Source: a virus. From it: a DNA stretch of 21,643 nucleotides. The notes under the pieces are model-generated. The model was not told the DNA's origin. It made no database searches and worked only from the letters and a program-made list of their open reading frames with translations. The translations under genes and the position numbers were made by a program. Below, piece after piece: positions 1-20,411 of the stretch (position 1 is its first letter; every line of letters begins with the position of its first letter). Location of the stretch: IMG/VR virus record IMGVR_UViG_3300033148_006227, positions 1 to 21,643 of that record; one strand, 5' to 3'.

Positions 1-165
1 TTTCTCCGTTTGTGCTTCCTCTCCATGCTTATATCCATGGATAAAATGAGTAATTAATAATGGTTTTATTATAGCCAAAAACCAATTAACATGAGACTCG
101 GCTAAAAGAAGAGCCTCTGTCTCTTTTCCCACAGATTTAAACTCACCATTTACTCCATTAGGCAT
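1..165 (-). CDS. Small phage protein of unknown function (3' end outside window)
   Basis: An ATG at 165 opens a reading frame of 55 codons that runs off the window edge without a stop. A ribosome binding site (GGAGACCTAAGTG) precedes it inside the end of the upstream gene, with an 8-bp overlap. The visible part has a polar start, a hydrophobic stretch around residues 28-40 (NWFLAIIKPLLITHF) and a His/Tyr/Lys-rich segment (HGYKHGEE). I do not recognise the family. The gene is the last visible member of the leftward operon and is translationally coupled to the ribbon-helix-helix-like gene before it. Confidence 0.6.
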   Translation of the reverse strand, partial: MPNGVNGEFKSVGKETEALLLAESHVNWFLAIIKPLLITHFIHGYKHGEEAQTEK

Positions 166-346
166 CACTTAGGTCTCCTATAATTTGTTTAGCCACAGTT
201 TGCTCAAAAGGGGTTTCTTCGCTACGAAGCAAGACTATTTCCCTTACTACTTTTCGCAACACTGCTGAGCGTTCTCCATGACCAGGGAAGAATCTGTAAA
301 ACCTTTCCCAAAGCGTTTTGTCTATCCGAAACTTGATTTCTTTCAT
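158..346 (-). CDS. Putative ribbon-helix-helix DNA-binding protein, 62 aa
   Basis: The start (residues 3-9, EIKFRID) looks like a beta strand. It is followed by two predicted helices, about 10-18 and 24-40, separated by a PGHGERSAVLR turn. That is the layout of small CopG/Arc-like ribbon-helix-helix proteins, which bind operators as dimers through the N-terminal strand. The ATG overlaps the stop of the preceding zinc-ribbon gene by 4 bp (ATGA), with GAAGGA as ribosome binding site. If the assignment is right, it is a candidate ligand for the dispersed 31-bp palindromic element. The family call rests only on residue pattern and size, so it is moderate. Confidence 0.55.
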   Translation of the reverse strand: MKEIKFRIDKTLWERFYRFFPGHGERSAVLRKVVREIVLLRSEETPFEQTVAKQIIGDLSDA

Positions 347-1620: not shown

Positions 1621-2498
1621 CACTTTGCTTCACCTCCTTTTGATGCTTTCCCATCCGACCCAAACCGACGGTTCCACAGTCCTGCAAACCCTTGAGGCTT
1701 TTCCGAACCATAGTCCAACAGAATTGGATCTTCCCAATAGGCTCCAAGAGTATTCAAACTTGACTTGAAAAACTCTTGCCTCCCCGAGCCTGCAGTTTGC
1801 CAGTAATAGGCCAGATTTCCATCTGTATCTGCCCTCCGATAACAGTAATAAGTTTCGTTAAACCAATTTGCTACTTCAGTCCTTAGCTTCCCTGTAACCT
1901 TAGGATAGAACTTCTGCGCTCCTGTAGCCTCATCCTGAAACAACTCAATGTGCCCTGTGTAGATTATATCCAAAGGAAAGGCTAAGGTTGCCAAAACAAA
2001 CTTAGCTAAGTTATCCATCTGGGGACCATAGTGCTGCCTCGCCGGGGAACCTCCAAGACCCCGTTTTGCGTCAAGCAGCAGTGCCCAATTCAAAGAAATC
2101 CTCCCCATCATAGTTAGTCCATCGAACATAATCCCACTATAGGGAAAAATCCCCTGCCGAATTTCCGAAACTATTACATCTTTAAGCCGTAAGGCTTTCT
2201 GCCAAGCCGTAGGACTTCTTGGATCAGCCTCATGAATCGGAAAAATATCTATATCAGGGAATCCAGCTAAGGCTTGCGCTCGATTGTCAAAGTCTACCAG
2301 AAGTTTCCTCCCTGGTAGAGTTGTCAATGCGGTAGTCTTACCCGAGCCACTTGGTCCGGCAAGAAAGATTTTCCATTTATAGTTCTCCGGATCAATTATC
2401 ATCGTTTCGGCATTTACCACTACCGAAGCAAACGCACTTTCCTTCTTCCCCGGTTGAGCTTCCACCTTCGAAGCTTCCACTACTATAGTCTCTGTCAT
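1620..2498 (-). CDS. Phage nucleotide-binding P-loop ATPase (AAA_24 / Sak4-like), 292 aa
   Basis: A RecA-fold ATPase of the type linked to phage single-strand annealing or strand exchange. Walker A is GPSGSGKT at residues 48-55, a second acidic strand is LLVDFDNR (66-73), and the Walker B-like strand is GIMFDGLT (122-129). The Ala/Gly-rich first 30 residues are probably flexible. I chose the ATG at 2498 because GGAAAGGAGGGGAGAT lies directly before it; the frame is open further upstream to 2549 but without a comparable site. The C-terminus (SKGGEAK) encodes the ribosome binding site of the next gene. It probably works with the DUF669-like protein and the PD-(D/E)XK nuclease on phage DNA ends. 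Confidence 0.85.
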   Translation of the reverse strand: MTETIVVEASKVEAQPGKKESAFASVVVNAETMIIDPENYKWKIFLAGPSGSGKTTALTTLPGRKLLVDFDNRAQALAGFPDIDIFPIHEADPRSPTAWQKALRLKDVIVSEIRQGIFPYSGIMFDGLTMMGRISLNWALLLDAKRGLGGSPARQHYGPQMDNLAKFVLATLAFPLDIIYTGHIELFQDEATGAQKFYPKVTGKLRTEVANWFNETYYCYRRADTDGNLAYYWQTAGSGRQEFFKSSLNTLGAYWEDPILLDYGSEKPQGFAGLWNRRFGSDGKASKGGEAK

Positions 2499-3283: not shown

Positions 3284-3315
3284 TTTTCAATCCTCCTCCC
3301 TTTGCGGTTTCGCCA

Positions 3316-3346
3316 CTACATCGTTCCATTAAATGACATCATCGAG
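3316..3346 (-). repeat. 31-bp dispersed palindromic element, copy 1
   Basis: Read leftward it begins CTCGATGATG, has the core TCATTTAATGG and ends GATGTAG. Its left end contains the TGA stop of the nuclease gene (CTCGATGA). Confidence 0.8.
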
Positions 3347-4418
3347 TACGCTTTGTCCGACCAAGCAGCTCTTCTATTACTCCTTTTCTACCTGGTCGAG
3401 TTGCTCCGGCACGTGTTGGAAGTGCTTTCAACGTTTCTCGTTTAGCTTCAGAGGGACTTCGTCGCCAAGGTTCCCATTTTTCTTCTCGATAGGTTAGGTT
3501 GGGAAAGGCCAGCGGGTCGAGAAGGTGGGGTTCAAGTCCGGAAAGGCATAAGCCTTTATAGGGACAGGCAGACTTCCCTATCCCTCCAGTGCAATTAATC
3601 GTGTCTGTAGTTTTGGGCCAGTGCCAGCGGTCCCAAGAACGCTCCACAGCTTCAATATCTCTTCGCCAGTCTCGCTCGAATTCTTTGAGGTCTTCTTCAG
3701 TTCGAGACTCAATTTGAGAAGAAAATTGAGGAGTGGTCCCTGTACACTTCACTACTTGCTTAGTTGCCATGTTAATTAAAACTCCAACGCAATCGCCAAG
3801 GAGTTGAACGGCGTACCAAAAATATCCTGTGATTTGAGAAGAAAATCTCCATTGCATCATAAAGAAATCAGAGAGCCAAATTCCTGTGGTTTTTTCCTCA
3901 AGGGGGAGAGTGCCGAATCCGGGCCAGTCAATATACCCATCCATTGAGCCTCCGAGGAAATACTGCGAAGCCATACCTCCAGCTTGGGGGAGTGGCCAAA
4001 GCCAACCAACTTCACTACCTCCCTTGACCAAAGACCAAGACTCAGTTGGATAAGTCCGCACATAGGCTTTCCAGAGTCGGATTAGATTATCTCGGGTATC
4101 GTTCTTGGCATCGGTGGCTCCAGAATTATCCCATAGATCAAGTCCGGTTACTAAGGCTTCTAAAGCAGCTTCTTTCCATTCAGGAGAAAAGGGTTTTGCT
4201 TTGCTTCCCGGTAAGCTGTACCAGGTACCTTTGATAAGATGCCAAGCAGAGCCCCAAGCGAAGTAGGCAGGGCGGATAAGATAATCGACTTGGCGAATTT
4301 TCCACCAGTAGAATTTCCTTTGGCACTGGTGGAAGTTTACTCGAAGAGTATTATCATAACGTCTGGGAGGACCGGCTTCTCGGCGAAGTCGCTCTTCCTG
4401 AGTTAGTGGGGCAAGCAT
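3339..4418 (-). CDS. PD-(D/E)XK nuclease, RecB/Cas4-like with probable Fe-S cluster, 359 aa
   Basis: RecB-family nuclease core: GxAWH at residues 56-60 (His60), metal-binding Asp160 in GGSMDGYIDW, Glu174-x-Lys176 in LPLEEKTTG, and a QxxxY motif at Gln195-Tyr199. Cys32 (FHQCQRKFYW) and a C-terminal trio Cys276, Cys285 and Cys291 are placed as in Cas4/AddB enzymes, where four cysteines hold a 4Fe-4S cluster. Expected activity is exonuclease on DNA ends. It shares the operon with a Sak4-like ATPase and an SSB-like protein, which suggests end resection for recombination or replication. The stop codon lies inside copy 1 of the 31-bp element. No cas1/cas2 or CRISPR is present, so an adaptation role is not supported here. 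Confidence 0.88.
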   Translation of the reverse strand: MLAPLTQEERLRREAGPPRRYDNTLRVNFHQCQRKFYWWKIRQVDYLIRPAYFAWGSAWHLIKGTWYSLPGSKAKPFSPEWKEAALEALVTGLDLWDNSGATDAKNDTRDNLIRLWKAYVRTYPTESWSLVKGGSEVGWLWPLPQAGGMASQYFLGGSMDGYIDWPGFGTLPLEEKTTGIWLSDFFMMQWRFSSQITGYFWYAVQLLGDCVGVLINMATKQVVKCTGTTPQFSSQIESRTEEDLKEFERDWRRDIEAVERSWDRWHWPKTTDTINCTGGIGKSACPYKGLCLSGLEPHLLDPLAFPNLTYREEKWEPWRRSPSEAKRETLKALPTRAGATRPGRKGVIEELLGRTKRTR

Positions 4419-5070: not shown

Positions 5071-5360
5071 CAGAAGGCCTCCTTTGCTGGCTTTGCTGCC
5101 GCCCTCTGGAGCAATTTCTTTCCCAATGCTATCTCGGCCACTGAGAGTCCAGATCGAAAAGCAATTTGTTCATTTTCGCTTAGATTCTTAAACTGCTCAA
5201 TACGTTCTCGCTGAATCTTATGCAGCAACCGTTGTTGCTCCCATAAAAGCTCTTCCTTTTTAAACGTAGTTTGACGAAGCTCAAATATTTTAGCCTCAAG
5301 AGCAATTATCTTATCCTTACACCACCGTTCTGCCATGATTATTGCTTTGTGTTGTTCCAT
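5070..5360 (-). CDS. Coiled-coil protein of unknown function, 96 aa
   Basis: Residues 15-60 form a long charged helix with heptad-like spacing (IIALEAKIFELRQ ... LLWEQQRLLHKIQRERIEQF). They are followed by a shorter helix (SVAEIALGKKLLQRA) and an Ala/Lys-rich tail AAAKPAKEAF whose codons contain the next gene's ribosome binding site. AAGGAGACTAAGCAATA precedes the ATG at 5360. Oligomerisation by coiled coil is likely; function is unknown. Confidence 0.68.
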   Translation of the reverse strand: MEQHKAIIMAERWCKDKIIALEAKIFELRQTTFKKEELLWEQQRLLHKIQRERIEQFKNLSENEQIAFRSGLSVAEIALGKKLLQRAAAKPAKEAF

Positions 5361-5366
5361 TATTGC

Positions 5367-5759
5367 TTAGTCTCCTTTCGAGGCCTCAATTGCTCCATAA
5401 ACCTCATCCCAACAAACCTCATCAAGCTCATCCTGATGAGTCTCTTGAAGTCGGTTTAGTAACTCCGAAGAAATCAATTGTTCCTCTAAAGCAATCTCAA
5501 CGATTTCAAGCTCGTTTTCAGCAACCAGAGCATTAAACTCCACCCTGATCTTCAAACAGATTTCGGTTTCAACAGTGAACTGAGGAACTGCGGTTTCTTT
5601 GTCCACATAGAGGGCACAATCACCAGCAAACCATTGCTTGTTCACTGTTGCTTTAGTATCTTCATGCAAATGCTCTTTATCCTTAATCCAGCTTCTCCAC
5701 AGCTGATCTGCTAAAGCAGCATTGTGATGAGGATAGGCTACGGCTATTTTTTCCGACAT
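5367..5759 (-). CDS. Unknown acidic phage protein, 130 aa
   Basis: The ATG at 5759 follows GGGGGAAAGCA and overlaps the end of the NrdR-like gene by 16 bp. The first half is mixed alpha/beta (KQWFAGDCALYVDKE then FTVETEICLKIRVEFNALV); the second half is very acidic and helical (ENELEIVEIALEEQLISS ... ETHQDELDEVCWDEVYGAIEA). It ends in SKGD, the shared tail that encodes the following ribosome binding site. No family is recognised. The acidity might suit a DNA-mimic or a partner-binding protein, which is speculation. Confidence 0.68.
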   Translation of the reverse strand: MSEKIAVAYPHHNAALADQLWRSWIKDKEHLHEDTKATVNKQWFAGDCALYVDKETAVPQFTVETEICLKIRVEFNALVAENELEIVEIALEEQLISSELLNRLQETHQDELDEVCWDEVYGAIEASKGD

Positions 5760-5929
5760 TGCTTTCCCCCTATAGATTTTAGCACTCTATTGTTTCGCTC
5801 CGTTGTATTCCACCGCCAGCCACAATCAAGACATTCTCTTCTTCGTTTGACTATATACTTATTCTGCTCAATAACTGGCCTTGTATCCACTACTTTATCA
5901 TTAAAACTTTCACAGTTTGGACACATCAT
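5744..5929 (-). CDS. Miniature NrdR-like zinc-ribbon protein, 61 aa
   Basis: The sequence matches the N-terminal zinc ribbon of NrdR closely in order and spacing: MMCPNCES at the start, VVDTRPV, then RRRECLDCGWRWNTTER. Full-length NrdR, the repressor of ribonucleotide reductase genes, continues with an ATP-cone of about 100 residues; this frame stops after the ribbon and a short basic tail. GGAGGAGGAAAGTA precedes the ATG pair. It may bind NrdR boxes or other DNA without nucleotide control, or interfere with host NrdR; both are inference. Confidence 0.8.
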   Translation of the reverse strand: MMCPNCESFNDKVVDTRPVIEQNKYIVKRRRECLDCGWRWNTTERNNRVLKSIGGKQCRKK

Positions 5930-6025: not shown

Positions 6026-6289
6026 TTAATGATAGGTTAGTTTATTTACATTTCTCCCTTCAAGGTTAGCGGCTTTGCCGCAGTCCCACCGTTCGAGGAT
6101 AACTTGATCTCCCACAACCGAAGTTTTTATAGCGTAGCTTAGTCGCAGTTCTTCTGTTTTTACGATAAAGATACCGAGTTGAACCACTTGAATAAAAATC
6201 TTTTCTCCAGACATGATTTTTTCTACAAGAGCCGCTAATGAAATATTGTCTCCTTGACCTTTGCCATCTTTGCCATCTTTGTCTACCAT
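6026..6289 (-). CDS. Unknown phage protein with repeated DGK start, 87 aa
   Basis: The ATG at 6289 follows AAAAAAGGGAGGTGTT. After a Gly/Asp/Lys-rich head (VDKDGKDGKGQGDN) comes a mixed alpha/beta stretch (LAALVEKIMSGEKIFIQVVQLGIFIV, in outline) and a second strand region (SVVGDQVILERWDC). The 13-nt hairpin at 6069-6081 is inside its coding region. Most of its length is overlapped by the signal-peptide frame from 6482. Of the two, this one has the more protein-like composition. Confidence 0.68.
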   Translation of the reverse strand: MVDKDGKDGKGQGDNISLAALVEKIMSGEKIFIQVVQLGIFIVKTEELRLSYAIKTSVVGDQVILERWDCGKAANLEGRNVNKLTYH

Positions 6290-6497: not shown

Positions 6498-6989
6498 TTA
6501 AGACTCGATCGAACCATTTAATGGTTTAATGCTCCCGGTTTTGCTCCCGGAACCGGCTTCGCCGATCTTCCTTTCCCATTCCTCGAGAATAGCCACTAAT
6601 TCAACATCGGTAATCTCTCCGGCGGTTAAGGCAGCTCGAGCTATCGATGAGGCTTCGTCAAGAGTCTCACATTCAAGTAGATTATCTATCACGAAGGTCT
6701 CAACTGGTGAAAACTCTACGGTTAGCTTCGAAGCAGTAAAGTCTTGGCAAATAATCCGCAAAGCTGTGGCGGATTCTCTAACCGTCCTATAATAAGCCTT
6801 GGAGGCAGTCTCGGAGAAATAAGTGTAGAGATGTGATCTCACTTGGTCGATCATCTGCGGAGAATCGTTTTGGATGAGTAAAGATTTTCCAGCACGGAGG
6901 CCTCGCAGTGCGGGGATTATTTCTGCCAAGATAAGCTTACCCGTAGGGGAAAGGCGTCGAGTTTTATAATTCAAAGAATCAAGAATCAA
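6498..6989 (-). CDS. Unknown phage protein ending in the 31-bp-element peptide, 163 aa
   Basis: I place the start at a TTG (6989) because AAAGGAGG sits 6 bp before it; the longer frame to 7118 would read through the upstream gene. The stop of the upstream gene overlaps by 11 bp. The product is largely helical (SPTGKLILAEIIPALRGLR, later ETLDEASSIARAALTAGEI and VELVAILEEWERKIGEA, all in outline), without a recognised motif. Its last residues, SIKPLNGSIES, are encoded by copy 2 of the 31-bp element. Confidence 0.68.
   Translation of the reverse strand: MILDSLNYKTRRLSPTGKLILAEIIPALRGLRAGKSLLIQNDSPQMIDQVRSHLYTYFSETASKAYYRTVRESATALRIICQDFTASKLTVEFSPVETFVIDNLLECETLDEASSIARAALTAGEITDVELVAILEEWERKIGEAGSGSKTGSIKPLNGSIES
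6504..6534 (+). repeat. 31-bp dispersed palindromic element, copy 2
   Basis: CTCGATCG, then AACCATT-T-AATGGTT (perfect 7-1-7 palindrome), then a diverged right end. Encodes the C-terminal SIKPLNGSIE of the 163-aa protein on the minus strand. Confidence 0.8.
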
Positions 6990-7308
6990 GGGATACCTCC
7001 TTTCGAGGCCGAGGGGCCTTTCGAAGCTGCCGCAACAAATGTCGCTTATTTTGAATTGCTTGAACCGAACGACCAAGGAATAAATGAAGTTCTCGATCAG
7101 TGAGACACCACATCTCAAGTACTCGTATTTCCATCATAGTCCAACGTGCTCCATGGTGGAAGTTCAAATCAGGACCAGCAGTTTGAGCATAGTTACGCTT
7201 GCGCTCAGCGGCTCGACGCTTAGGATATTTAGCCCGATAGCGTTTGGTGGCTAAATAGTTTGGGTTTAGCTGCGGCTTAGCCGCCTTAGCTTCTTTAAGA
7301 CTTGTCAT
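6979..7308 (-). CDS. Putative Myb/SANT-like helix-turn-helix protein, 109 aa
   Basis: The central part, about residues 55-95, reads like a Myb/SANT-type DNA-binding module: an ARWTMMEIRVLEMW helix, a LTDRELHLFLG helix and a recognition helix RSVQAIQNKRHLL. The flanks are strongly basic (KRYRAKYPKRRAAERKR and LRKAPRPRK). AAAAGGAGGATCAAT precedes the ATG at 7308, which overlaps the upstream gene by 14 bp. Similar proteins in phages are putative transcriptional regulators or HNH-associated modules; here no nuclease is attached. Another candidate reader of the dispersed palindromes. Confidence 0.7.
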   Translation of the reverse strand: MTSLKEAKAAKPQLNPNYLATKRYRAKYPKRRAAERKRNYAQTAGPDLNFHHGARWTMMEIRVLEMWCLTDRELHLFLGRSVQAIQNKRHLLRQLRKAPRPRKEVSLDS

Positions 7309-7582
7309 ATTGATCCTCCTTTTGCGGCTTGGCCGCGACATCCTTTACCCATTTACAGGTATCTAACCTTCTCATAGCTCCTCTTGAGCTATCTTTAGCC
7401 CCATTCCAGTAGATTATATCTACATTTCCACATTTGGAACAAATAGCTTTTACATTTTCCTTTTGCTGCAAGAGGTGAAACTTCCTACAACCACAAACAC
7501 AAGCCCAGTAACCTTTCTTTAGATTCTTTCTTCTTTCTTTTTCGTATTCTGTTATTAAACATGAATTAGTTATTCTTTTCAT
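7295..7582 (-). CDS. Zinc-ribbon protein, 95 aa
   Basis: A CVCGC motif near residue 28 and CSKCG near residue 48 form a likely zinc ribbon after a basic helical start (EYEKERRKNLKKG). AAAAGGAGAAACCACTT precedes the ATG at 7582. Just before it lies an imperfect 5-3-5 hairpin (7601-7613). The C-terminal VAAKPQKEDQYDKS is encoded by the perfect hairpin at 7324-7336 and by the ribosome binding site of the next gene, so this tail is probably shaped by RNA needs rather than protein function. Confidence 0.68.
   Translation of the reverse strand: MKRITNSCLITEYEKERRKNLKKGYWACVCGCRKFHLLQQKENVKAICSKCGNVDIIYWNGAKDSSRGAMRRLDTCKWVKDVAAKPQKEDQYDKS
7324..7336 (-). repeat. 13-nt hairpin before a ribosome binding site
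   Basis: Read leftward: GCGGCCAAGCCGC followed directly by AAAAGGAGG and, after a short spacer, the ATG at 7308. The 13-mer is identical to the one at 8398-8410. Confidence 0.7.
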
Positions 7583-7617
7583 AAGTGGTTTCTCCTTTTG
7601 TGGCTCTGCCGCTTGGT

Positions 7618-8194: not shown

Positions 8195-8225
8195 CTCGAT
8201 CATGTTGTTTAATGGTTTGATGTAG
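8195..8225 (+). repeat. 31-bp dispersed palindromic element, copy 3
   Basis: CTCGATCATG, weaker core TTGTTTAATGG, then TTTGATGTAG. Lies in the gap between the first two leftward genes and joins a hairpin at 8219-8255. Confidence 0.75.
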
Positions 8226-8382: not shown

Positions 8383-8397
8383 TGTTTCACCTCCCTT

Positions 8398-8410
8398 GCG
8401 GCTTGGCCGC
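8398..8410 (-). repeat. 13-nt hairpin before a ribosome binding site
   Basis: Read leftward: GCGGCCAAGCCGC followed directly by AAGGGAGG and the ATG at 8382. Same 13-mer as at 7324-7336; related variants lie at 3304-3316, 7272-7284, 7601-7613 and 8237-8249. Confidence 0.7.
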
Positions 8411-8470: not shown

Positions 8471-8552
8471 CAAATCGAGGAATATAAATGATTCTGGGGA
8501 TTAATTAATTTAGGGGTGAATATCCCAATATGCGAACCCCCCAAATTCCGAA

Positions 8553-8589
8553 CCAATACACTTTCGTTCGTTTGGGTACCCCGTAAAAG
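8553..8589 (+). repeat. 37-bp inverted repeat, left arm
   Basis: CCAATACA-CT-TTCGTTCGTTTG-GG-TACCCCGTAAAAG. It matches the reverse complement of 8807-8843 at 33 of 37 positions; the four differences are two adjacent pairs. Confidence 0.88.
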
Positions 8590-8699
8590 GGATTTTTGGT
8601 TTGAGGTGGCTAAGCAAGGCTAAGCAGTAATGCAGTAATGCAATAATGCAGCAGAAATCTTTTGAATGGGCCCTTTTAGCTTTTTCCTTTTCTATAGTT

Positions 8700-8724: not shown

Positions 8725-8806
8725 TCTCACTGCATTAACAGCTATCTAAGAGCTCACTCGCCTTGGTGCAGCATTTCTTTCCTCGCAACCCAAACATAAA
8801 TAATTT

Positions 8807-8843
8807 CTTTTACGGGGTATGCAAACGAACGAATCTGTATTGG
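8807..8843 (-). repeat. 37-bp inverted repeat, right arm
   Basis: Reverse complement of the left arm with four substitutions. Weaker similarity continues outward on both sides (for example ATTCACC about 50 bp out). Confidence 0.88.
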
Positions 8844-8989
8844 ATCAATGGTTCGTGGATTTGTTGATTTGGGGATTCACCACGGCCCCTTCTTTAGGCC
8901 TCTGATGAGGCAGCAATGCAGCAAAGCAACAGACTCCCCAGCCCCACCGTTTATGGCTTAGCTTCAATGCTACATAAACCACCCAAAGG

Positions 8990-9020
8990 CTCGATCATGC
9001 CATTAAATGGAACGATGTAG
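8990..9020 (+). repeat. 31-bp dispersed palindromic element, copy 4
   Basis: CTCGATCATG, core CCATTAAATGG, AACGATGTAG: the cleanest copy. It sits in the control region, six bases before the first of three tandem repeats. Confidence 0.85.
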
Positions 9021-9025
9021 GATTG

Positions 9026-9178
9026 TGTAATGATTCCACGAGGTTGGAAAGGGGTTCAAATAATTGAATCCGGTTTGTGTAATGATTTTGGGAGGTTATC
9101 AAAAAGCGTTCAATTATTTGGATTTGAGATATGTAATGATTTCAACAGGTTGCCGAAAATGGTTCAATTATTTGTATT
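9026..9178 (+). repeat. Three tandem iteron-like repeats of 52-54 bp
   Basis: Units start at 9026, 9078 and 9132. Each has TGTAATGATT, then AGGTT, an A-rich spot, then TTCAA(T/A)(T/A)A(A/T)TTG near its end. The variable bases are confined to fixed positions. Placement between copy 4 of the 31-bp element and the rightward promoter suggests binding sites for an initiator or regulator. Confidence 0.8.
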
Positions 9179-10065: not shown

Positions 10066-10134
10066 ATAGCGGCAGAAACTCGAAACAAATTAATCAATCG
10101 AACTAAAAATGTGAAAGGAAAGCAAAATGTCTGA
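10066..10134 (+). CDS. Possible 22-codon gene with ATA start, or decayed start
   Basis: AGGGAGGTGATACA is an excellent ribosome binding site, but the codon at the right distance is ATA, not ATG, GTG or TTG. It opens 22 codons (AAETRNKLINRTKNVKGKQNV) that overlap the next gene by 8 bp, as neighbouring genes do. It could use a rare AUA start, be a mutated start, or be a leader only. Confidence 0.3.
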   Translation: MAAETRNKLINRTKNVKGKQNV

Positions 10135-10642
10135 TGAAAACAAGAACGAGACCAATGACACCGAGACAAGCGAATCCGGAGGAGCAGCAAATCCCGCCGT
10201 ACCCGTAAAGAGGGAAATCGAATACCACGCACCAGTCAGAGAATTTGACAACACAAAGCATATCATAACCAATGTTGGATTCACGGCAAAGGCCGATGAG
10301 AAGTATCAAATCATTTGGTTAATCCCTGAAACCGATGAGGAATCGTTGAAGCGATATGACGCTCCGCTTTCCGCTTTAATCGAGGCAGGTGTTCGTCAAC
10401 TTTCAACGAGACCTGATTATAAAACAATCGGCTTTGAGGATGATGGCACGCCGAAGCTCGATGGGCATCAAGGCATGCAAGACCTTGCTGATGGTTATCA
10501 GGTTGGCAAACGTGTTGTTGGAGTTGGTCAAAAGGTTATGGCACAAAAGGCTGTGGCCGCCGAGAAGGAATTGGGTATGAGCATGGAAGAGATGGTTGCA
10601 AAGATGTTGGCCATGAAAGCCGATGGACTTTTGACTGATTAA
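10127..10642 (+). CDS. Unknown acidic phage protein, 171 aa
   Basis: GAAAGGAAAGCAAA precedes the ATG at 10127. The first 25 residues are acidic, Ser/Thr/Asn-rich and probably disordered (SDENKNETNDTETSE). A folded middle follows (HIITNVGFTAKADEKYQIIWLIPETDEE, in outline), then a C-terminal helix rich in Met, Ala and Lys (MSMEEMVAKMLAMKADGLL). I see no enzyme motif. It ends before a small hairpin (10663-10685) and a frameshifted gene. Confidence 0.75.
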   Translation: MSDENKNETNDTETSESGGAANPAVPVKREIEYHAPVREFDNTKHIITNVGFTAKADEKYQIIWLIPETDEESLKRYDAPLSALIEAGVRQLSTRPDYKTIGFEDDGTPKLDGHQGMQDLADGYQVGKRVVGVGQKVMAQKAVAAEKELGMSMEEMVAKMLAMKADGLLTD

Positions 10643-10662
10643 TTAATAAACCATTAATGACC

Positions 10663-10685
10663 TGGGTAAGTCAATAAACTACCCA
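10663..10685 (+). other. Small hairpin between genes
   Basis: GGGT-A-AGT pairs with ACT-ACCC around CAATAA (one bulged A). No U-tract follows; it sits just before the ribosome binding site of the frameshifted gene and might affect its translation. Confidence 0.35.
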
Positions 10686-10967: not shown

Positions 10968-11102
10968 GTACTTTCAACTGCAATGATGTTACCTCAAACC
11001 ATCACAGCTTTAATCATTACAACTCAAAAGACTTCAGTAATAAAGACCACAGTTCATATCATTTCATCTCGGATCATTTCAACTCAAATGATTTCAGCTC
11101 AA
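10968..11102 (+). repeat. Nine phased degenerate 15-bp repeats
   Basis: Units start every 15 bp from 10968 to 11088. The best are ATCATTTCATCTCGG, ATCATTTCAACTCAA and ATGATTTCAGCTCAA (11058-11102). Because 15 is a multiple of three, two plus-strand frames stay open, giving pentapeptide repeats such as SDHFN-SNDFS; no ribosome binding site supports translation. Confidence 0.75.
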
Positions 11103-11228
11103 AGCATCTACCCCTCTGGGGGGATTTCAATCCTCGGGGGTGGGGATAAACCCCCCTGATTAGCTATGTAATTTTTGCCTTGCTGCTGTGTAGTGATGAT
11201 GAAGCAAGTAAGCCTGAAGGCTCGAGAT

Positions 11229-11259
11229 CTCGATTGATCCATTAAACGGTTTGATATAG
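11229..11259 (+). repeat. 31-bp dispersed palindromic element, copy 5
   Basis: CTCGATTGAT, core CCATTAAACGG, TTTGATATAG. It lies 44 bp upstream of the -35 box of the late promoter. Confidence 0.85.
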
Positions 11260-11370: not shown

Positions 11371-12693
11371 ATGACTTGGTGGGATGGAGTGCCAGCTGAA
11401 TATCAGGAACATTTACCAGGGCCACCTCCGGGAACAGGGGAAGTGCTGAAGGGGCTTGGGCAAAGAGGGCTTGAAGAAGGGATGGAACCTTTTCTTGATG
11501 TTGGGCAAGGGGTTAAAGAATCGCTTAAGAGGGTTTACGAAGCAACGGCTCAGATGTCTCGAGGGGAGGTGGTTTCGGGAGGTGTTACACCTTTTAAAGA
11601 CGCTCCTTTTGAGTTTATGGGTATGCTTGCAGGCTACGTGGCAAGTCTTCCGATTAAAGGTTTGAGGAATCTATTGGAATCGAGTAAGACGTTGCAGCAA
11701 CAAGGGGTTCAAACGCTTCTTGGTGGTCCTCGAGGAGAAGGTGGTGATTGGACTCCAGAGCAGTTAGATATGTCAATGCTGGCTACTGAACTAACTCTTG
11801 GAGCTATGGTGGGTGGTGGGCCGGGAGCAGGAACTGGACCAGCAAACATTGCGTTGAGGAGCACCGGGAAAGGATCCTCAAAGGTTGTTGGAGCACTTGA
11901 AATGCTGGCGAAAGAGTTTAGAGCAATGCGAAAGACTCCAAAAGCTTGGGTAAAAGCTAAAGCAGAAGGTAAACCTATACTACACCATAATATAAAAGCG
12001 GTTACCAAGTTTGGGGAAAAAGCCGAGGCAACCCTTGAAACAATGACAAAGAACTATCCTATAATTACTAAGGGATTACGTCAAATTCCTCAAGAAGCTC
12101 TTGACTTGGTTAAAGAGGTCGGGTTGGCTCCAAAGTATCGAACCGACATTCACGGAAGGTTTAGGCCTTCTATGGGAAGGGTTGAATATCAGATTGCTCA
12201 ACCACTAAGCAAGGAGACTATTCCTCATGAGGTGTTTCACGCGGTGCAGCTAAACGAATTACGTGCTGCTGGGGTTAAACGAGTTAATCTTGCAGTACTT
12301 GAAGCTCATGCTTATGAGTTTGAAGGTATGTATCTGGATGCTGTAAAGAAACTTCCTAAAGAACAGAAACCTGATATGGCTTTGTTTATGCGAATTTATG
12401 ATGAGGCTAAACAGTCTATGTTCGCTAAATATGGAACTAATCTCAGTGCCTATAAAATGGAAGAGATTGTGAGCAAGGCTCATCTTGAACGAAAGTGGAA
12501 AATGTTGGAAGCTGAGGGAGAGCTGCAAAGTGCTGCAAAACCTCCGAAGACCGTTGGAATGCGGCTTAAGGACTATACTCGGAAAGGTGAGGCAAAGATG
12601 CCTAAGCTAAGCCAAGAGGATAAAGCACTTCGAGATATAACCAAAGCGTCTATGGGACGATTTTTGCGTGAGCAAGAATTGATAAGGAGATAG
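11371..12693 (+). CDS. Putative HExxH metallopeptidase-like virion protein, 440 aa
   Basis: GGAGTAGAGCTT precedes the ATG. The N-terminal half is Gly/Pro-rich (LPGPPPGTGE; a run of Gly around 148-156) with helices and may be structural. A zinc-peptidase motif HEVFH lies at residues 286-290 (His286, Glu287, His290), preceded by a beta strand (RVEYQIAQPL) as in real HExxH proteases. Glu311 or Glu316 in EAHAYEFE could supply a third ligand, as in gluzincins. The C-terminus is basic and helical. First gene of the late operon, 4 bp before the small terminase gene: perhaps a maturation protease or an ejected protein. Substrate unknown. Confidence 0.65.
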   Translation: MTWWDGVPAEYQEHLPGPPPGTGEVLKGLGQRGLEEGMEPFLDVGQGVKESLKRVYEATAQMSRGEVVSGGVTPFKDAPFEFMGMLAGYVASLPIKGLRNLLESSKTLQQQGVQTLLGGPRGEGGDWTPEQLDMSMLATELTLGAMVGGGPGAGTGPANIALRSTGKGSSKVVGALEMLAKEFRAMRKTPKAWVKAKAEGKPILHHNIKAVTKFGEKAEATLETMTKNYPIITKGLRQIPQEALDLVKEVGLAPKYRTDIHGRFRPSMGRVEYQIAQPLSKETIPHEVFHAVQLNELRAAGVKRVNLAVLEAHAYEFEGMYLDAVKKLPKEQKPDMALFMRIYDEAKQSMFAKYGTNLSAYKMEEIVSKAHLERKWKMLEAEGELQSAAKPPKTVGMRLKDYTRKGEAKMPKLSQEDKALRDITKASMGRFLREQELIRR

Positions 12694-12697
12694 AGTA

Positions 12698-13219
12698 ATG
12701 GGACGACCAGTAGAGAATTTACCAGATCGAATTGCAATTAAGCAACTAAGAAACCATCATCGCAGTATGGCTCGGGATATTGTTGCTATGGGTGAAGTGA
12801 GGAACAAGGACTTGGCTCGGATATATAACATGCTCCCTCCGCAGATTTCAATTATAGTAAACTCACCTGTGTTTATTGCTGAAGTGGCAAGGCTTGAGGC
12901 TGAGGTTGAAGAGTCTATCTGTGACGTGAGGGAAGGGATTAGGCTCTTGGTTCCGAGAGCTGAGCAAGTTTTAAAGGAAGAACTTTTTAAGGATGATGGC
13001 CCCGTGGTTGGGGAGGAGTTAAGCCTCTCTGAGCGAAAGCTCCGCCTTGCTGTGGCTACAGATATTCTTGATAGAGACTCGGGAAAGAAGAAGCATGGGG
13101 AAAGTGCAGCGAAGAGTTTGCATTTTCATAGTCATAATGAGATTCATATGGTAGGGGGTATGACTACAGAGGAACTTCAGAACGATGTTTTTTCGTTGAT
13201 TGAGGATGTTGAGGATTAA
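12698..13219 (+). CDS. Putative terminase small subunit, 173 aa
   Basis: GATAAGGAGATAGAGTA precedes the ATG, and the TAA overlaps the large-subunit ATG (TAATG). The N-terminal part (residues 20-60) contains a helix-turn-helix-like segment (GEVRNKDLARIYNMLPPQISIIV in outline). A long helical region follows (VARLEAEVEESICDVREGIRLL...), with an acidic end (EEL..DVFSLIEDVED). Terminase small subunits bind packaging-site DNA and form rings that regulate the large subunit. The assignment rests on size, architecture and direct pairing with the large subunit. Confidence 0.7.
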   Translation: MGRPVENLPDRIAIKQLRNHHRSMARDIVAMGEVRNKDLARIYNMLPPQISIIVNSPVFIAEVARLEAEVEESICDVREGIRLLVPRAEQVLKEELFKDDGPVVGEELSLSERKLRLAVATDILDRDSGKKKHGESAAKSLHFHSHNEIHMVGGMTTEELQNDVFSLIEDVED

Positions 13220-15033
13220 TGCTTTCTAAGATACCAAAAACGTATAGAGAGAACTTAGCCTGGCGAAGATCTATTCTTCAGAAAGCGAAGAGAGACCAAG
13301 TTTTTCGTGCTAAGGTTAGGGAACTGTTTCATAGGGATATTGTTTTTGCTTTTAATGCATTTTTCTATACTCTCGATGTCCGAAGGAGGCCTTTTCATCA
13401 TCAGCCTTTTTGTACCTATCCTTATCAAGAAGATAAAGTGTTGCTTCAGCTGGTCGAGGCGATCAATGGTGGGAAGGATTGTCCGATTGAGAAGAGTCGA
13501 GATATGGGAGCTTCGTGGCTGGTAATTCTTACCTTTCTGTGGTTCTGGCTTGATCCTAAGGGCGGAACGGATTTCCTTCTTGGGTCAAGAATCGAGGACT
13601 ATGTAGACAAGAAGGGTGATATGAGAACCCTGATGGAGAAGGCGAGGTATACGCTGAGGAAACTTCCTCGATGGCTTCTTCCCAAGGGGTTTGTCTGGAA
13701 GAAACACGATAATTTTATGAGGCTGCAGAATCCAGCAACGGGGGCTTCAATAACTGGGGAATCAAATAATGCAAACTTCTCAACAGGCGGTCGATATGCC
13801 GCGGTTCTTTTCGACGAGTTTGCTAAGTGGGAGGGGACGGATAAGGCTGCTTGGACTGCCGCTGGTGATGCTACCCCCTGTCGGATTCCAGTTTCGACTC
13901 CTTTTGGTGCAGCAGGGCAGTACTACGACTTAGTCACCGACCCAACGAAGACGAAGATAAGATTGCATTGGTCTCTGCATCCTTTGAAGGCTCTGGGAGC
14001 CTACTGCAACTGGCCTCGAGCGAAGGAAGACGAAGATCTTGTTGGGGAGGCGCTTGAGGCGTTGATTCGTTCTCCTTGGTACAACAAAGAGTGCCAACGA
14101 AGGTCTCCGGCAGAGGTTGCGCAAGAACTTGATATTGATTACATTGGAGCAGGGAGACCTGCTTTTGATGGAAAGGCTGGGAAACGGATAGGAACTCTTC
14201 TTAAGATCGGCCGAGCGCCTGAAACCTACTATGACTTTGATCTGGGGGGCTTGAAGTTAATCGAGATAGGAGAAGTGCGAGACCGTAGGCCGAGGAAAGA
14301 AGATGCTTATGCTGTTGGGGTAGATGTAGTTGAAGGGACTGAGGATGGAGATTTTGCGGTGCTTAAAGTGCTGAATCGGAGGACTAAGGATTGTGATGCA
14401 ACTTATTGGTCTCGGATTAACGAGGTGGAATTGGCTCGAGTAGTCAAATGTGTCTCTGATCTTTATAGCACAACTGACGCTCCCTGGGTAGGAATTGAAA
14501 CGAATTCTCCGGGCTTGGCTACTTTTGATTTCTGTGCCGAGGTTTACGACATTCACAATCTCTTCATGATGCCAGTGTTTGACTCGGCTAAGCAAAGCGT
14601 GAGCTTTAAAAAGGGCTGGAGGACGACTGAGTCGAGTAGGAAAGTCTTGGTCTCCGGAGTTAAAAATTGGCTTATTGAGAAGCAAGGTTGGGGAGATTCT
14701 CGGCTTTGTCGTGAAATGACTACTTTTGTAGTTAATAAGAATAAAAAGCCAGAGGCCAAAGCGGGCTGCAATGATGATGAGGTTATGGCCTGGGGAGTGG
14801 CGATTCAAGTAGACCTGATTGCCCCGGAAGCCTCTTATATCGCCCCGATAGCCCTAAGGGAAGATGGACTTGCCTTGGATGTTTTTAATCCGAAGGAAGA
14901 TGGAAGTCCGAAGACGATACAAGAACGTTGCTTTCTCTGTGCCTTAGGAAAGCAGCAAGAAAAAATAAACTTAAATCAATTTGGCTCGATTGATCCATTA
15001 AACGGAATGATTGAGTATGGGTGGGGAGGGTAA
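13219..15033 (+). CDS. terL: Terminase large subunit, 604 aa
   Basis: DNA-packaging motor with ATPase and nuclease domains. The ATPase carries a phage-type Walker A, EKSRDMGAS (residues 91-99), and Walker B VLFDE (196-200); STP in RIPVSTPFG fits the coupling motif. The RNase H-like nuclease has Asp369 (AVGVDV), Glu427 (WVGIETNS) and Asp519/Asp520 (AGCNDDEVMAWG). The C-terminal SIDPLNGMIEYGWGG contains ten residues encoded by copy 6 of the 31-bp element, beyond the conserved fold. It starts at a TAATG junction with the small subunit and works with the portal gene at the window's right end. Confidence 0.95.
   Translation: MLSKIPKTYRENLAWRRSILQKAKRDQVFRAKVRELFHRDIVFAFNAFFYTLDVRRRPFHHQPFCTYPYQEDKVLLQLVEAINGGKDCPIEKSRDMGASWLVILTFLWFWLDPKGGTDFLLGSRIEDYVDKKGDMRTLMEKARYTLRKLPRWLLPKGFVWKKHDNFMRLQNPATGASITGESNNANFSTGGRYAAVLFDEFAKWEGTDKAAWTAAGDATPCRIPVSTPFGAAGQYYDLVTDPTKTKIRLHWSLHPLKALGAYCNWPRAKEDEDLVGEALEALIRSPWYNKECQRRSPAEVAQELDIDYIGAGRPAFDGKAGKRIGTLLKIGRAPETYYDFDLGGLKLIEIGEVRDRRPRKEDAYAVGVDVVEGTEDGDFAVLKVLNRRTKDCDATYWSRINEVELARVVKCVSDLYSTTDAPWVGIETNSPGLATFDFCAEVYDIHNLFMMPVFDSAKQSVSFKKGWRTTESSRKVLVSGVKNWLIEKQGWGDSRLCREMTTFVVNKNKKPEAKAGCNDDEVMAWGVAIQVDLIAPEASYIAPIALREDGLALDVFNPKEDGSPKTIQERCFLCALGKQQEKINLNQFGSIDPLNGMIEYGWGG
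14985..15015 (+). repeat. 31-bp dispersed palindromic element, copy 6
   Basis: CTCGATTGAT, core CCATTAAACGG, AATGATTGAG. It encodes SIDPLNGMIE in the last codons of the large terminase gene. Confidence 0.85.
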
Positions 15034-19709: not shown

Positions 19710-20099
19710 ATGTGGAGTTGGGCTAAAAGCATTCTTAGTATTGGTAAGAACTCTGAGACACTTATCACTGGTGCTGTTGCTGGGATAGATGCTTTAGTTT
19801 TTACTGCTGAGGAAAAGTCAAGAGCTTCCCTCGAGGTATACCAACTATGGTTAAAGACTCAAGAGGTACTTGCTTCTGAATCTTCCGTGCGAAGTATTAC
19901 GAGAAGAATCTTAGCCATTATGATTCTTGGAACTTTTTTGGGTTTGCTTATTGCTGCCGGAGTGATTTATTCAATAAGCGAGACTTATGCTGCTTTCTTA
20001 CTTTCTTTAGCTTCGGAACTAAGTGGGCTAAGCTTAGCTATCGGCTGTTTCTACTTTGGTGTCCATTTGCTGAGGGGTTTGGGCAAACCCAAAGAATGA
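19710..20099 (+). CDS. Putative holin of the 3TM (GTA-holin-like) type, 129 aa
   Basis: GGAGGTAGACTA precedes the ATG at 19710; the frame is open further left but inside the endolysin gene. The N-terminal helix (SETLITGAVAGIDALVFTAEEKSRASLEVY, in outline), a polar linker with SSVRSITRRILA, and two strong membrane segments (about residues 70-92 and 97-122) match the layout of 3TM holins. The stop codon lies within copy 7 of the 31-bp element. It should release the M15 endolysin. Confidence 0.78.
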   Translation: MWSWAKSILSIGKNSETLITGAVAGIDALVFTAEEKSRASLEVYQLWLKTQEVLASESSVRSITRRILAIMILGTFLGLLIAAGVIYSISETYAAFLLSLASELSGLSLAIGCFYFGVHLLRGLGKPKE

Positions 20100-20122
20100 A
20101 TCCATTAAATGGATTGATCGAG
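20092..20122 (-). repeat. 31-bp dispersed palindromic element, copy 7
   Basis: Read leftward: CTCGATC, then AATCCATT-T-AATGGATT (perfect 8-1-8 palindrome). Contains the TGA stop of the holin gene at its right end. Confidence 0.8.
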
Positions 20123-20138: not shown

Positions 20139-20411
20139 ATGAGTTTTAAGAAAGATACAAAGGCTCGATTGGCAAGACTTGAAGACAAGATGGATCAGTT
20201 GATAGAGATTTATGGAGAGGCGGAAAGGCTAAAAGAACAAAACGAGGCTCTTTTTGATCGGCTTATGTCGAGAAATTGGGATGAATATTACTTAAGTCCC
20301 TCTGCCTCGAATAGGATAAAGCAGCACATGACTGAGCCGACTGTACTATCGCCGTCACAGGATGAAGCATCTATTGGAGGGGTTTTTACCGATGAAGAAC
20401 TTAGTGGATAG
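20139..20411 (+). CDS. Unknown protein with N-terminal coiled coil, 90 aa
   Basis: GGGGGGAGGAAT precedes the ATG. Residues 6-45 form a charged coiled coil (ARLARLEDKMDQLIEIYGEAERLKEQNEALFDRL, in outline), then a polar, probably flexible tail with Pro/Ser (TEPTVLSPSQDEASIGG). It overlaps the portal gene by 20 bp and carries its GGAGGGG. It may be a head or portal accessory or scaffold-like protein; inferred from position only. Confidence 0.68.
   Translation: MSFKKDTKARLARLEDKMDQLIEIYGEAERLKEQNEALFDRLMSRNWDEYYLSPSASNRIKQHMTEPTVLSPSQDEASIGGVFTDEELSG

What the first reader, a model, noticed from the sequence alone, without database searches (positions are those of the whole stretch)
6498..6534. 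The element encodes the same C-terminal peptide in unrelated proteins on opposite strands
Copy 2 gives SIKPLNGSIE at the end of a minus-strand protein; copy 6 (14985-15015) gives SIDPLNGMIE at the end of the plus-strand large terminase. The palindrome yields the same decapeptide in either orientation in this frame. Both stops follow within a few codons. Either the DNA element is tolerated as a C-terminal tag, or the peptide itself has a role, such as a shared docking tail.
Basis: seen in the sequence. Interest (0 to 1): 0.75.

Follow-up and report, generated by a model that had tools for sequence, protein, structure and literature searches.

The report
Evenly spaced phage DNA-binding palindromes
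The matching protein tails are a side effect of a 31-base mirror-image DNA element that this family of uncultivated phages carries at intervals along the whole genome, each phage with its own version, probably as docking sites for a phage protein that joins a ParB-type DNA clamp to a DNA-methylating enzyme.

Summary
Both peptides exist as described, but they are by-products of DNA. A 31-bp odd palindrome occurs 7 times in the window, 33-41 bits against 3.6 for the next-best site. It puts stops in most reading frames, so the frame left open usually spells SIxP(L/F)NGxIE. In relatives the whole genome's set changes core together (CCATTWAATGG to TCGTTWAACGA). The TerL tail then changes from SIDPLNGMIE to SMDSLNEMM*, and other copies are read in other frames. 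Homologues of the 6498-7118 protein in three relatives lack the tail. A docking peptide is rejected.

The element is a genome-specific, dispersed DNA site: 184 copies in 19 genomes, 80% outside genes (random 14%), and more evenly spaced than random gene junctions (0 of 2000 draws). Half-sites do not co-vary, so it is not an RNA hairpin. All 17 relatives found to encode a ParB-CTPase/HTH/DNA-methyltransferase fusion carry a set; 14 phages without it do not, nor do three with a distant version. I infer, without showing binding, parS/NBS/OB-like sites for this fusion (known in phages, function unknown, no DNA site found reported). The window is cut before that gene; polymerase and primase genes co-occur equally.

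The parts
3316..3346 (-). Palindrome copy 1; overlaps the 3' end and supplies the TGA stop (3339-3341) of the exonuclease-like gene 3339-4418(-)
   Evidence: (35.6 bits)
6504..6534 (.). Palindrome copy 2 (the finding); encodes SIKPLNGSIE at the C-terminus of ORF 6498-7118(-)
   Evidence: (32.6 bits)
8195..8225 (.). Palindrome copy 3; intergenic
   Evidence: (32.6 bits)
8990..9020 (.). Palindrome copy 4; intergenic, in the region between the two divergent gene blocks
   Evidence: (40.3 bits)
11229..11259 (.). Palindrome copy 5; intergenic, 111 nt upstream of 11371-12693; same place in G001
   Evidence: (35.8 bits)
14985..15015 (.). Palindrome copy 6; last codons of TerL (SIDPLNGMIE), 21 nt before the next start codon
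   Evidence: (38.2 bits)
20092..20122 (-). Palindrome copy 7; contains the TGA stop of 19710-20099 and lies 16 nt before 20139-20411, upstream of the portal gene
   Evidence: (32.6 bits)
6498..7118 (-). ORF carrying copy 2 as a C-terminal extension; homologues in G002 (49%), G003, G018 and G019 (28-29%)
13219..15033 (+). Terminase large subunit carrying copy 6 at its C-terminus
1..346 (-). Left end of the contig: truncated small gene and ribbon-helix-helix-like protein (158-346). In relatives G002 and G003 this block continues into small genes and then the ParB-methyltransferase gene, which lies just outside this contig
   Evidence: inference from synteny

Best explanation
The element is a site-specific protein-binding DNA sequence: a dimer site of two inverted half-sites around a 5-nt, mostly AT-rich centre, with an outer box about one helical turn out. 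It is dispersed along the phage genome at gene junctions, and the shared C-terminal peptide is what it spells when it overlaps a gene end. Shown by computation: genome-specific sets, concerted divergence, junction placement, even spacing, independently varying half-sites. Inferred: the cognate binder is the ParB-CTPase/HTH/N6_N4 DNA-methyltransferase fusion encoded beside DNA polymerase in these phages. It would load at the palindromes as ParB does at parS, Noc at NBS or KorB at OB, close as a nucleotide-dependent clamp and slide into flanking DNA. Sites every 3-6 kb would let it cover the genome, for methylation (self-protection), genome organisation or control of gene expression. Junction placement fits the fact that such a palindrome blocks most reading frames.
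For: (a) 19 genomes each hold a private set of 4-20 odd palindromes with a clear score gap in every set. (b) 17 of 17 relatives shown to encode the fusion have a set: six found through TerL, nine through the fusion itself, one through DNA polymerase, plus Desulfofustis phage OP947158. Fourteen phages without the fusion do not (excess over null at most 3, against 4-12 for nearly all positives), including G005, which shares the capsid module but lacks the fusion. (c) Only three gene families occur in all 13 near-complete set-bearing genomes: DNA polymerase A, DUF3987 primase and the fusion; only the fusion belongs to a family known for binding dispersed palindromes. G027 and Desulfofustis keep the set with a different capsid module. 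(d) The fusion has GERRxRA and ENxxRE nucleotide motifs and an HTH region. Its N-terminal model (pLDDT 89.6) matches ParB, Noc bound to NBS, and KorB (Z 8.7-10.6); the C-terminal part matches M.BceJIV and CcrM (Z 24). (e) 184 sites: 80% outside CDS against 14%; spacing CV sum 7.1 against 11.3 +/- 0.8, 0 of 2000. (f) Half-sites do not covary.
Against: Binding is not shown. The window is cut before the gene, so the fusion's presence in this very phage is inferred from relatives. Ten of the 17 positives were found through the fusion, so its presence there is by selection. DNA polymerase A and the primase co-occur equally. A sliding-window test for the segment that best predicts the motif was inconclusive: the best segments lay in the methyltransferase domain, not the HTH. 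Three distant relatives (Mel-JY34, MW202489, Vibrio ABTNL-3) have a ParB-methyltransferase-like protein but no detectable set. Known parS, NBS and OB sites are shorter (about 14-16 bp) than 31 bp. G018 and G019 have atypical box II (GFRRL, GHRRL).
Confidence: 0.6

Rival explanations
1. Operators of a different phage regulator (a repressor or activator, or the RHH protein near 158-346), acting as promoter-overlapping operators or transcription roadblocks like stoperators.
For: In tandem junctions the element lies mostly 5-30 nt before the next start codon, and divergent junctions are well represented. Positions are shared between relatives: TerL end, upstream of the portal genes, after the capsid gene. 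Stoperators likewise form genome-specific dispersed sets (PMC6550527).
Against: The RHH family is found in only 7 of 13 set-bearing genomes. No repressor-like or integrase family appeared in the Pfam census of G002, G003 and G018. No consensus promoter or terminator coincides with a copy. Even spacing and seven convergent sites are not expected of promoter operators. Orientation does not follow transcription.
Confidence: 0.22
2. RNA-level element: mRNA hairpin for termination, processing or translation control between genes.
For: Palindromes at gene junctions just before start codons; some sets (G018) could form long hairpins.
Against: Arms within a copy pair less often than randomly re-paired half-sites of the same genome (777 pairs against 816 +/- 10, all 2000 shuffles higher), so there is no compensatory change. 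No U-tract; no Rfam match in the window. Single-base centre and no orientation relative to genes.
Confidence: 0.06
3. The decapeptide is functional: a shared C-terminal docking tail of TerL and the 6498-7118 protein.
For: Two unrelated proteins end in SIxPLNGxIE; close relatives G001 and G002 keep a similar TerL tail.
Against: The tail changes wherever the genome-wide DNA core changes; homologues lack it; other copies are non-coding or read in other frames; other frames through the element mostly contain stops.
Confidence: 0.02
4. Recombination, packaging or replication mark (Chi-like, boundary sequence for module exchange, or origin-related site) read by a replication protein.
For: Even dispersal and junction placement; linkage to the replication module rather than the capsid module.
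Against: The dimeric odd palindrome and concerted specificity change point to a dedicated site-specific binder; polymerase A and the DUF3987 primase are not known palindrome binders (established knowledge).
Confidence: 0.1

Closest known systems
KorB and its OB operators on plasmid RK2 (PMC11790492)
   Same: ParB-family CTP clamp with HTH; operator sites close to or far from target promoters; long-range action by sliding from the site
   Different: OB is a 16-bp silencer sequence; KorB has no methyltransferase domain; here 31 bp, genome-wide even spacing, binding not shown
ParB-parS and Noc-NBS
   Same: Multiple palindromic sites bound by ParB-CTPase/HTH proteins; the fold of the fusion's N-terminus matches ParB and Noc
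   Different: 14-16 bp even palindromes (own knowledge); parS works with ParA, none found here; fused methyltransferase here
Phage ParB-CTPase/N6_N4 methyltransferase fusions (PMC12704722)
   Same: Same domain architecture, reported as more frequent in phages
   Different: In that survey the function is only guessed at (anti-defence or phage-host interaction); I found no DNA site reported for them
Mycobacteriophage L5/Bxb1 stoperators (PMC6550527)
   Same: Genome-specific sets of dispersed binding sites that diverge together with the phage
   Different: Stoperators are asymmetric, mostly oriented with transcription and bound by an immunity repressor; here near-symmetric, unoriented, no repressor or integrase found

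Membership tests
Dispersed ParB-family sites (parS/NBS/OB) | Palindromic sequence in several copies on one replicon | tested here: met
   7 copies in the window; 4-20 in each of 19 genomes
Dispersed ParB-family sites (parS/NBS/OB) | Cognate ParB-family protein encoded by the same replicon | tested here: inconclusive
   Present in all 6 near-complete TerL relatives with a set and in contigs found otherwise; the window itself is cut before the syntenic place
Dispersed ParB-family sites (parS/NBS/OB) | Specific binding by that protein | not testable with these tools
   needs footprinting or EMSA
ParB-CTPase/HTH clamp proteins (for the fusion) | Nucleotide-binding motifs (GERRxRA, ENxxRE) and ParB fold followed by HTH | tested here: met
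   G018 and G019 have GFRRL and GHRRL in place of GERR
ParABS partition system | ParA ATPase partner | tested here: not met
   no ParA family in the Pfam census of G018, G002 and G003
Mycobacteriophage stoperators | Asymmetric site in one orientation relative to transcription | tested here: not met
   near-symmetric sites; orientation does not follow genes
Mycobacteriophage stoperators | Immunity repressor of a temperate phage | tested here: inconclusive
   no repressor or integrase family in the census, but many proteins are unannotated
Intrinsic terminator or RNA hairpin | Base-paired stem kept by compensatory change, then a U-tract | tested here: not met
Conserved docking peptide | Peptide kept while DNA changes | tested here: not met

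The most novel reading that the evidence does not exclude
The palindromes are evenly spaced loading stations for a nucleotide-gated sliding clamp that carries a DNA methyltransferase: the clamp loads at a site, slides through the neighbouring genes and methylates them, so the phage marks its own genome (and not the host's) by the presence of its private palindrome. Each lineage would keep its own palindrome dialect, which restricts methylation to self DNA.
Probability: 0.25. Interest if true: 0.88.

Novelty: new variant of a known kind. Interest (0 to 1): 0.7.

Why it matters
ParB-CTPase/methyltransferase fusions are frequent in phages and have no known role or DNA target. This work supplies candidate DNA sites for one branch of them: 19 genome-specific sets with conserved geometry and even spacing. 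That makes a direct binding, sliding and methylation test possible. It also shows how a dispersed DNA element can mimic a conserved protein motif.

Tried and rejected
Docking-peptide reading: rejected. RNA hairpin or terminator: rejected by the half-site re-pairing test and the scans. Consensus promoters: 27 found against 33 expected, none on a copy. Homologues of the 6498-7118 protein in viral contigs by single sequence: none; found by synteny instead. Sliding-window partial correlation between segments of the fusion and motif distance: inconclusive. Strict palindrome-hub detection missed most of G004 and gave only 2-3 above null in the short contigs G000 and G001; matrix scans show those sets clearly. 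A sensitive search for a set in the three distant ParB-methyltransferase phages and in G005 found none. The fusion-first scan missed L140, which the polymerase-first scan recovered. Structure search of the full-length model is dominated by the methyltransferase domain, so the N-terminus was folded alone.

Full report
What was checked. The window is a 21,643-bp uncultivated virus contig. Both are spelled by a 31-bp odd palindrome, which occurs 7 times in the window: 3316-3346, 6504-6534, 8195-8225, 8990-9020, 11229-11259, 14985-15015 and 20092-20122. These score 33-41 bits with a symmetric matrix; the next unrelated site scores 3.6.

Why the peptides agree. Through the 7 copies the frame that reads SIxP(L/F)NGxIE is open in 10 of 14 cases, while the other four frames are open in 7 of 28, because the palindrome contains TGA, TAA and TAG in those frames. 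A copy that overlaps a gene end is therefore mostly forced into this frame or ends the gene itself, as in copies 1 and 7, where the stop codon lies inside the element. The opposite strands give similar, not identical, peptides (PFNG in place of PLNG), so the 'same in either orientation' claim is only approximate.

Relatives were found through TerL and read in full. G001 (TerL 98%) and G002 (82%) carry the same palindrome, 4 and 9 copies. G003 (72%) carries 9 copies in which the core has become TCGTTWAACGA in place of CCATTWAATGG, on both half-sites and nearly throughout the set, coding or not. At the TerL end the peptide follows the DNA: SIDPLNGMIE, SIDPFNGSVE, SMDSLNEMM*, and in G018, with a quite different palindrome...GEVV*. 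In G004, G016 and G017 TerL has no copy at its end. The 6498-7118 protein has homologues in G002 (49%), G003, G018 and G019 (28-29%); the last three end without the peptide, and in G003 a copy lies in the non-coding region upstream of that operon. Other copies are read in other frames (G003 10973-11221, G001 10124-10669). The peptide therefore has no independent conservation.

What the element is. De novo palindrome searches show that nearly every genome of this group has a private set: 4-20 copies each in 19 genomes, all odd palindromes of the same geometry (inner half-site, 5-nt centre, outer box about 10 bp further out), with sequences as different as CTATATTGATTCATTTTTTGAATCAATGTAG (G016), GAGATGGCGTTCAAAAATTGAACGCCATCTC (G018) and TATGTCCCAANTTGGGACATA (Desulfofustis phage). 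Of 184 sites, 80% lie mostly outside called genes, against 14% for random positions. In tandem junctions the element usually sits between -10 and +20 nt of the upstream stop and 5-30 nt before the next start; 20 sites are at divergent and 7 at convergent junctions. In 13 near-complete genomes the sites are more evenly spaced than the same number of random gene junctions (summed CV 7.1 against 11.3 +/- 0.8; 0 of 2000). The two arms of a copy pair less well than randomly re-paired half-sites of the same genome (777 against 816 +/- 10), so there is no compensatory change as in an RNA hairpin; the picture is of two independently varying protein half-sites. No consensus promoter, intrinsic terminator or Rfam family falls on a copy in the window.

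The candidate binder. A census of gene families found a 446-570-aa protein made of a ParB-type nucleotide-binding domain, an HTH region and an N6_N4 DNA methyltransferase. AlphaFold models match ParB, Noc with its DNA site, and KorB in the N-terminal part (Z 8.7-10.6), and M.BceJIV and CcrM in the C-terminal part (Z 24). It is encoded in all six near-complete TerL relatives with a set, and is absent from G005, which has the same capsid module but no set. Scanning viral contigs with this protein gave nine further contigs (G020-G028); each has its own palindrome set. So do a contig found through DNA polymerase (L140) and the Desulfofustis phage OP947158. That makes 17 of 17. Fourteen phages without the protein (ten IMG/VR contigs, three cultured phages, G005) show no set under the same test (excess at most 3, mostly 0-1, against 4-12 for nearly all positives). 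G027 and the Desulfofustis phage have a different capsid module but keep the set, so it travels with the replication module. Only three families are in all 13 near-complete set-bearing genomes: DNA polymerase A, the DUF3987 primase and this fusion; only the fusion comes from a family known to bind dispersed palindromes.

Limits. No binding was shown. The window ends about where the fusion gene should begin, so its presence in this phage is inferred from synteny with G002 and G003. Ten of the 17 positives were found through the fusion, so the co-occurrence is not independent there. Polymerase and primase co-occur equally. A covariation test that should have picked out the HTH was inconclusive. 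Three distant phages (Mel-JY34, MW202489, Vibrio ABTNL-3) carry a ParB-methyltransferase-like protein without a detectable set, so the protein alone is not sufficient.

Mechanism proposed. Shown: dispersed, evenly spaced, genome-specific dimer-type sites at gene junctions. Inferred: the ParB-methyltransferase loads there, as ParB does at parS or KorB at OB (KorB: CTP-dependent sliding clamp reaching promoters from distant OB sites, PMC11790492), and moves into flanking DNA. Even spacing suggests genome-wide coverage, for methylation or organisation, rather than control of single promoters; regulation remains the main rival. A survey of the ParB-CTPase fold reports that N6_N4 methyltransferase fusions are more frequent in phages and can only suggest an anti-defence or phage-host role (PMC12704722); literature searches here found no report of DNA sites for them.

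Noticed in passing
window 1634-1654, 3296-3316, 5079-5099, 6061-6081, 7316-7336, 7592-7612, 8390-8410: A second dispersed repeat (family D1). On the minus strand it reads GCGGC-loop-GCCGC-AAAAGGAG, a small hairpin followed by a Shine-Dalgarno sequence, mostly just before starts of small minus-strand genes (start codons at 1620, 3283, 5070, 7308, 7582, 8382). It looks like a translation-start-associated hairpin, distinct from the palindrome.
   Followed up: partly
window 8515-8597 and 8799-8881: An imperfect 83-nt inverted repeat (72%) in the large region between the two divergent gene blocks, with 26-nt direct repeats at 9020-9151.
   Followed up: no
window 158-346 (-): 62-aa ribbon-helix-helix-like protein conserved near the ParB-methyltransferase gene in G002 and G003, with homologues in 7 of 13 near-complete relatives; also a basic small protein (F21) beside the fusion in 12 of 13.
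   Followed up: partly
window 5744-5929 (-): 61-aa protein matching the NrdR-like zinc ribbon N-terminal domain without the ATP-cone.
   Followed up: no
G016 (L081-L083), 15 palindrome copies: The centre is an asymmetric T5/A5 tract whose orientation varies between copies, reminiscent of recombinase spacers; no relation to gene direction was seen.
   Followed up: no
Microcystis phage Mel-JY34 (PP438425), MW202489, Vibrio phage ABTNL-3 (MF497422): Distant ParB-methyltransferase proteins with an insertion of about 11 residues in the ParB domain and no detectable dispersed palindromes; a natural contrast group.
   Followed up: partly
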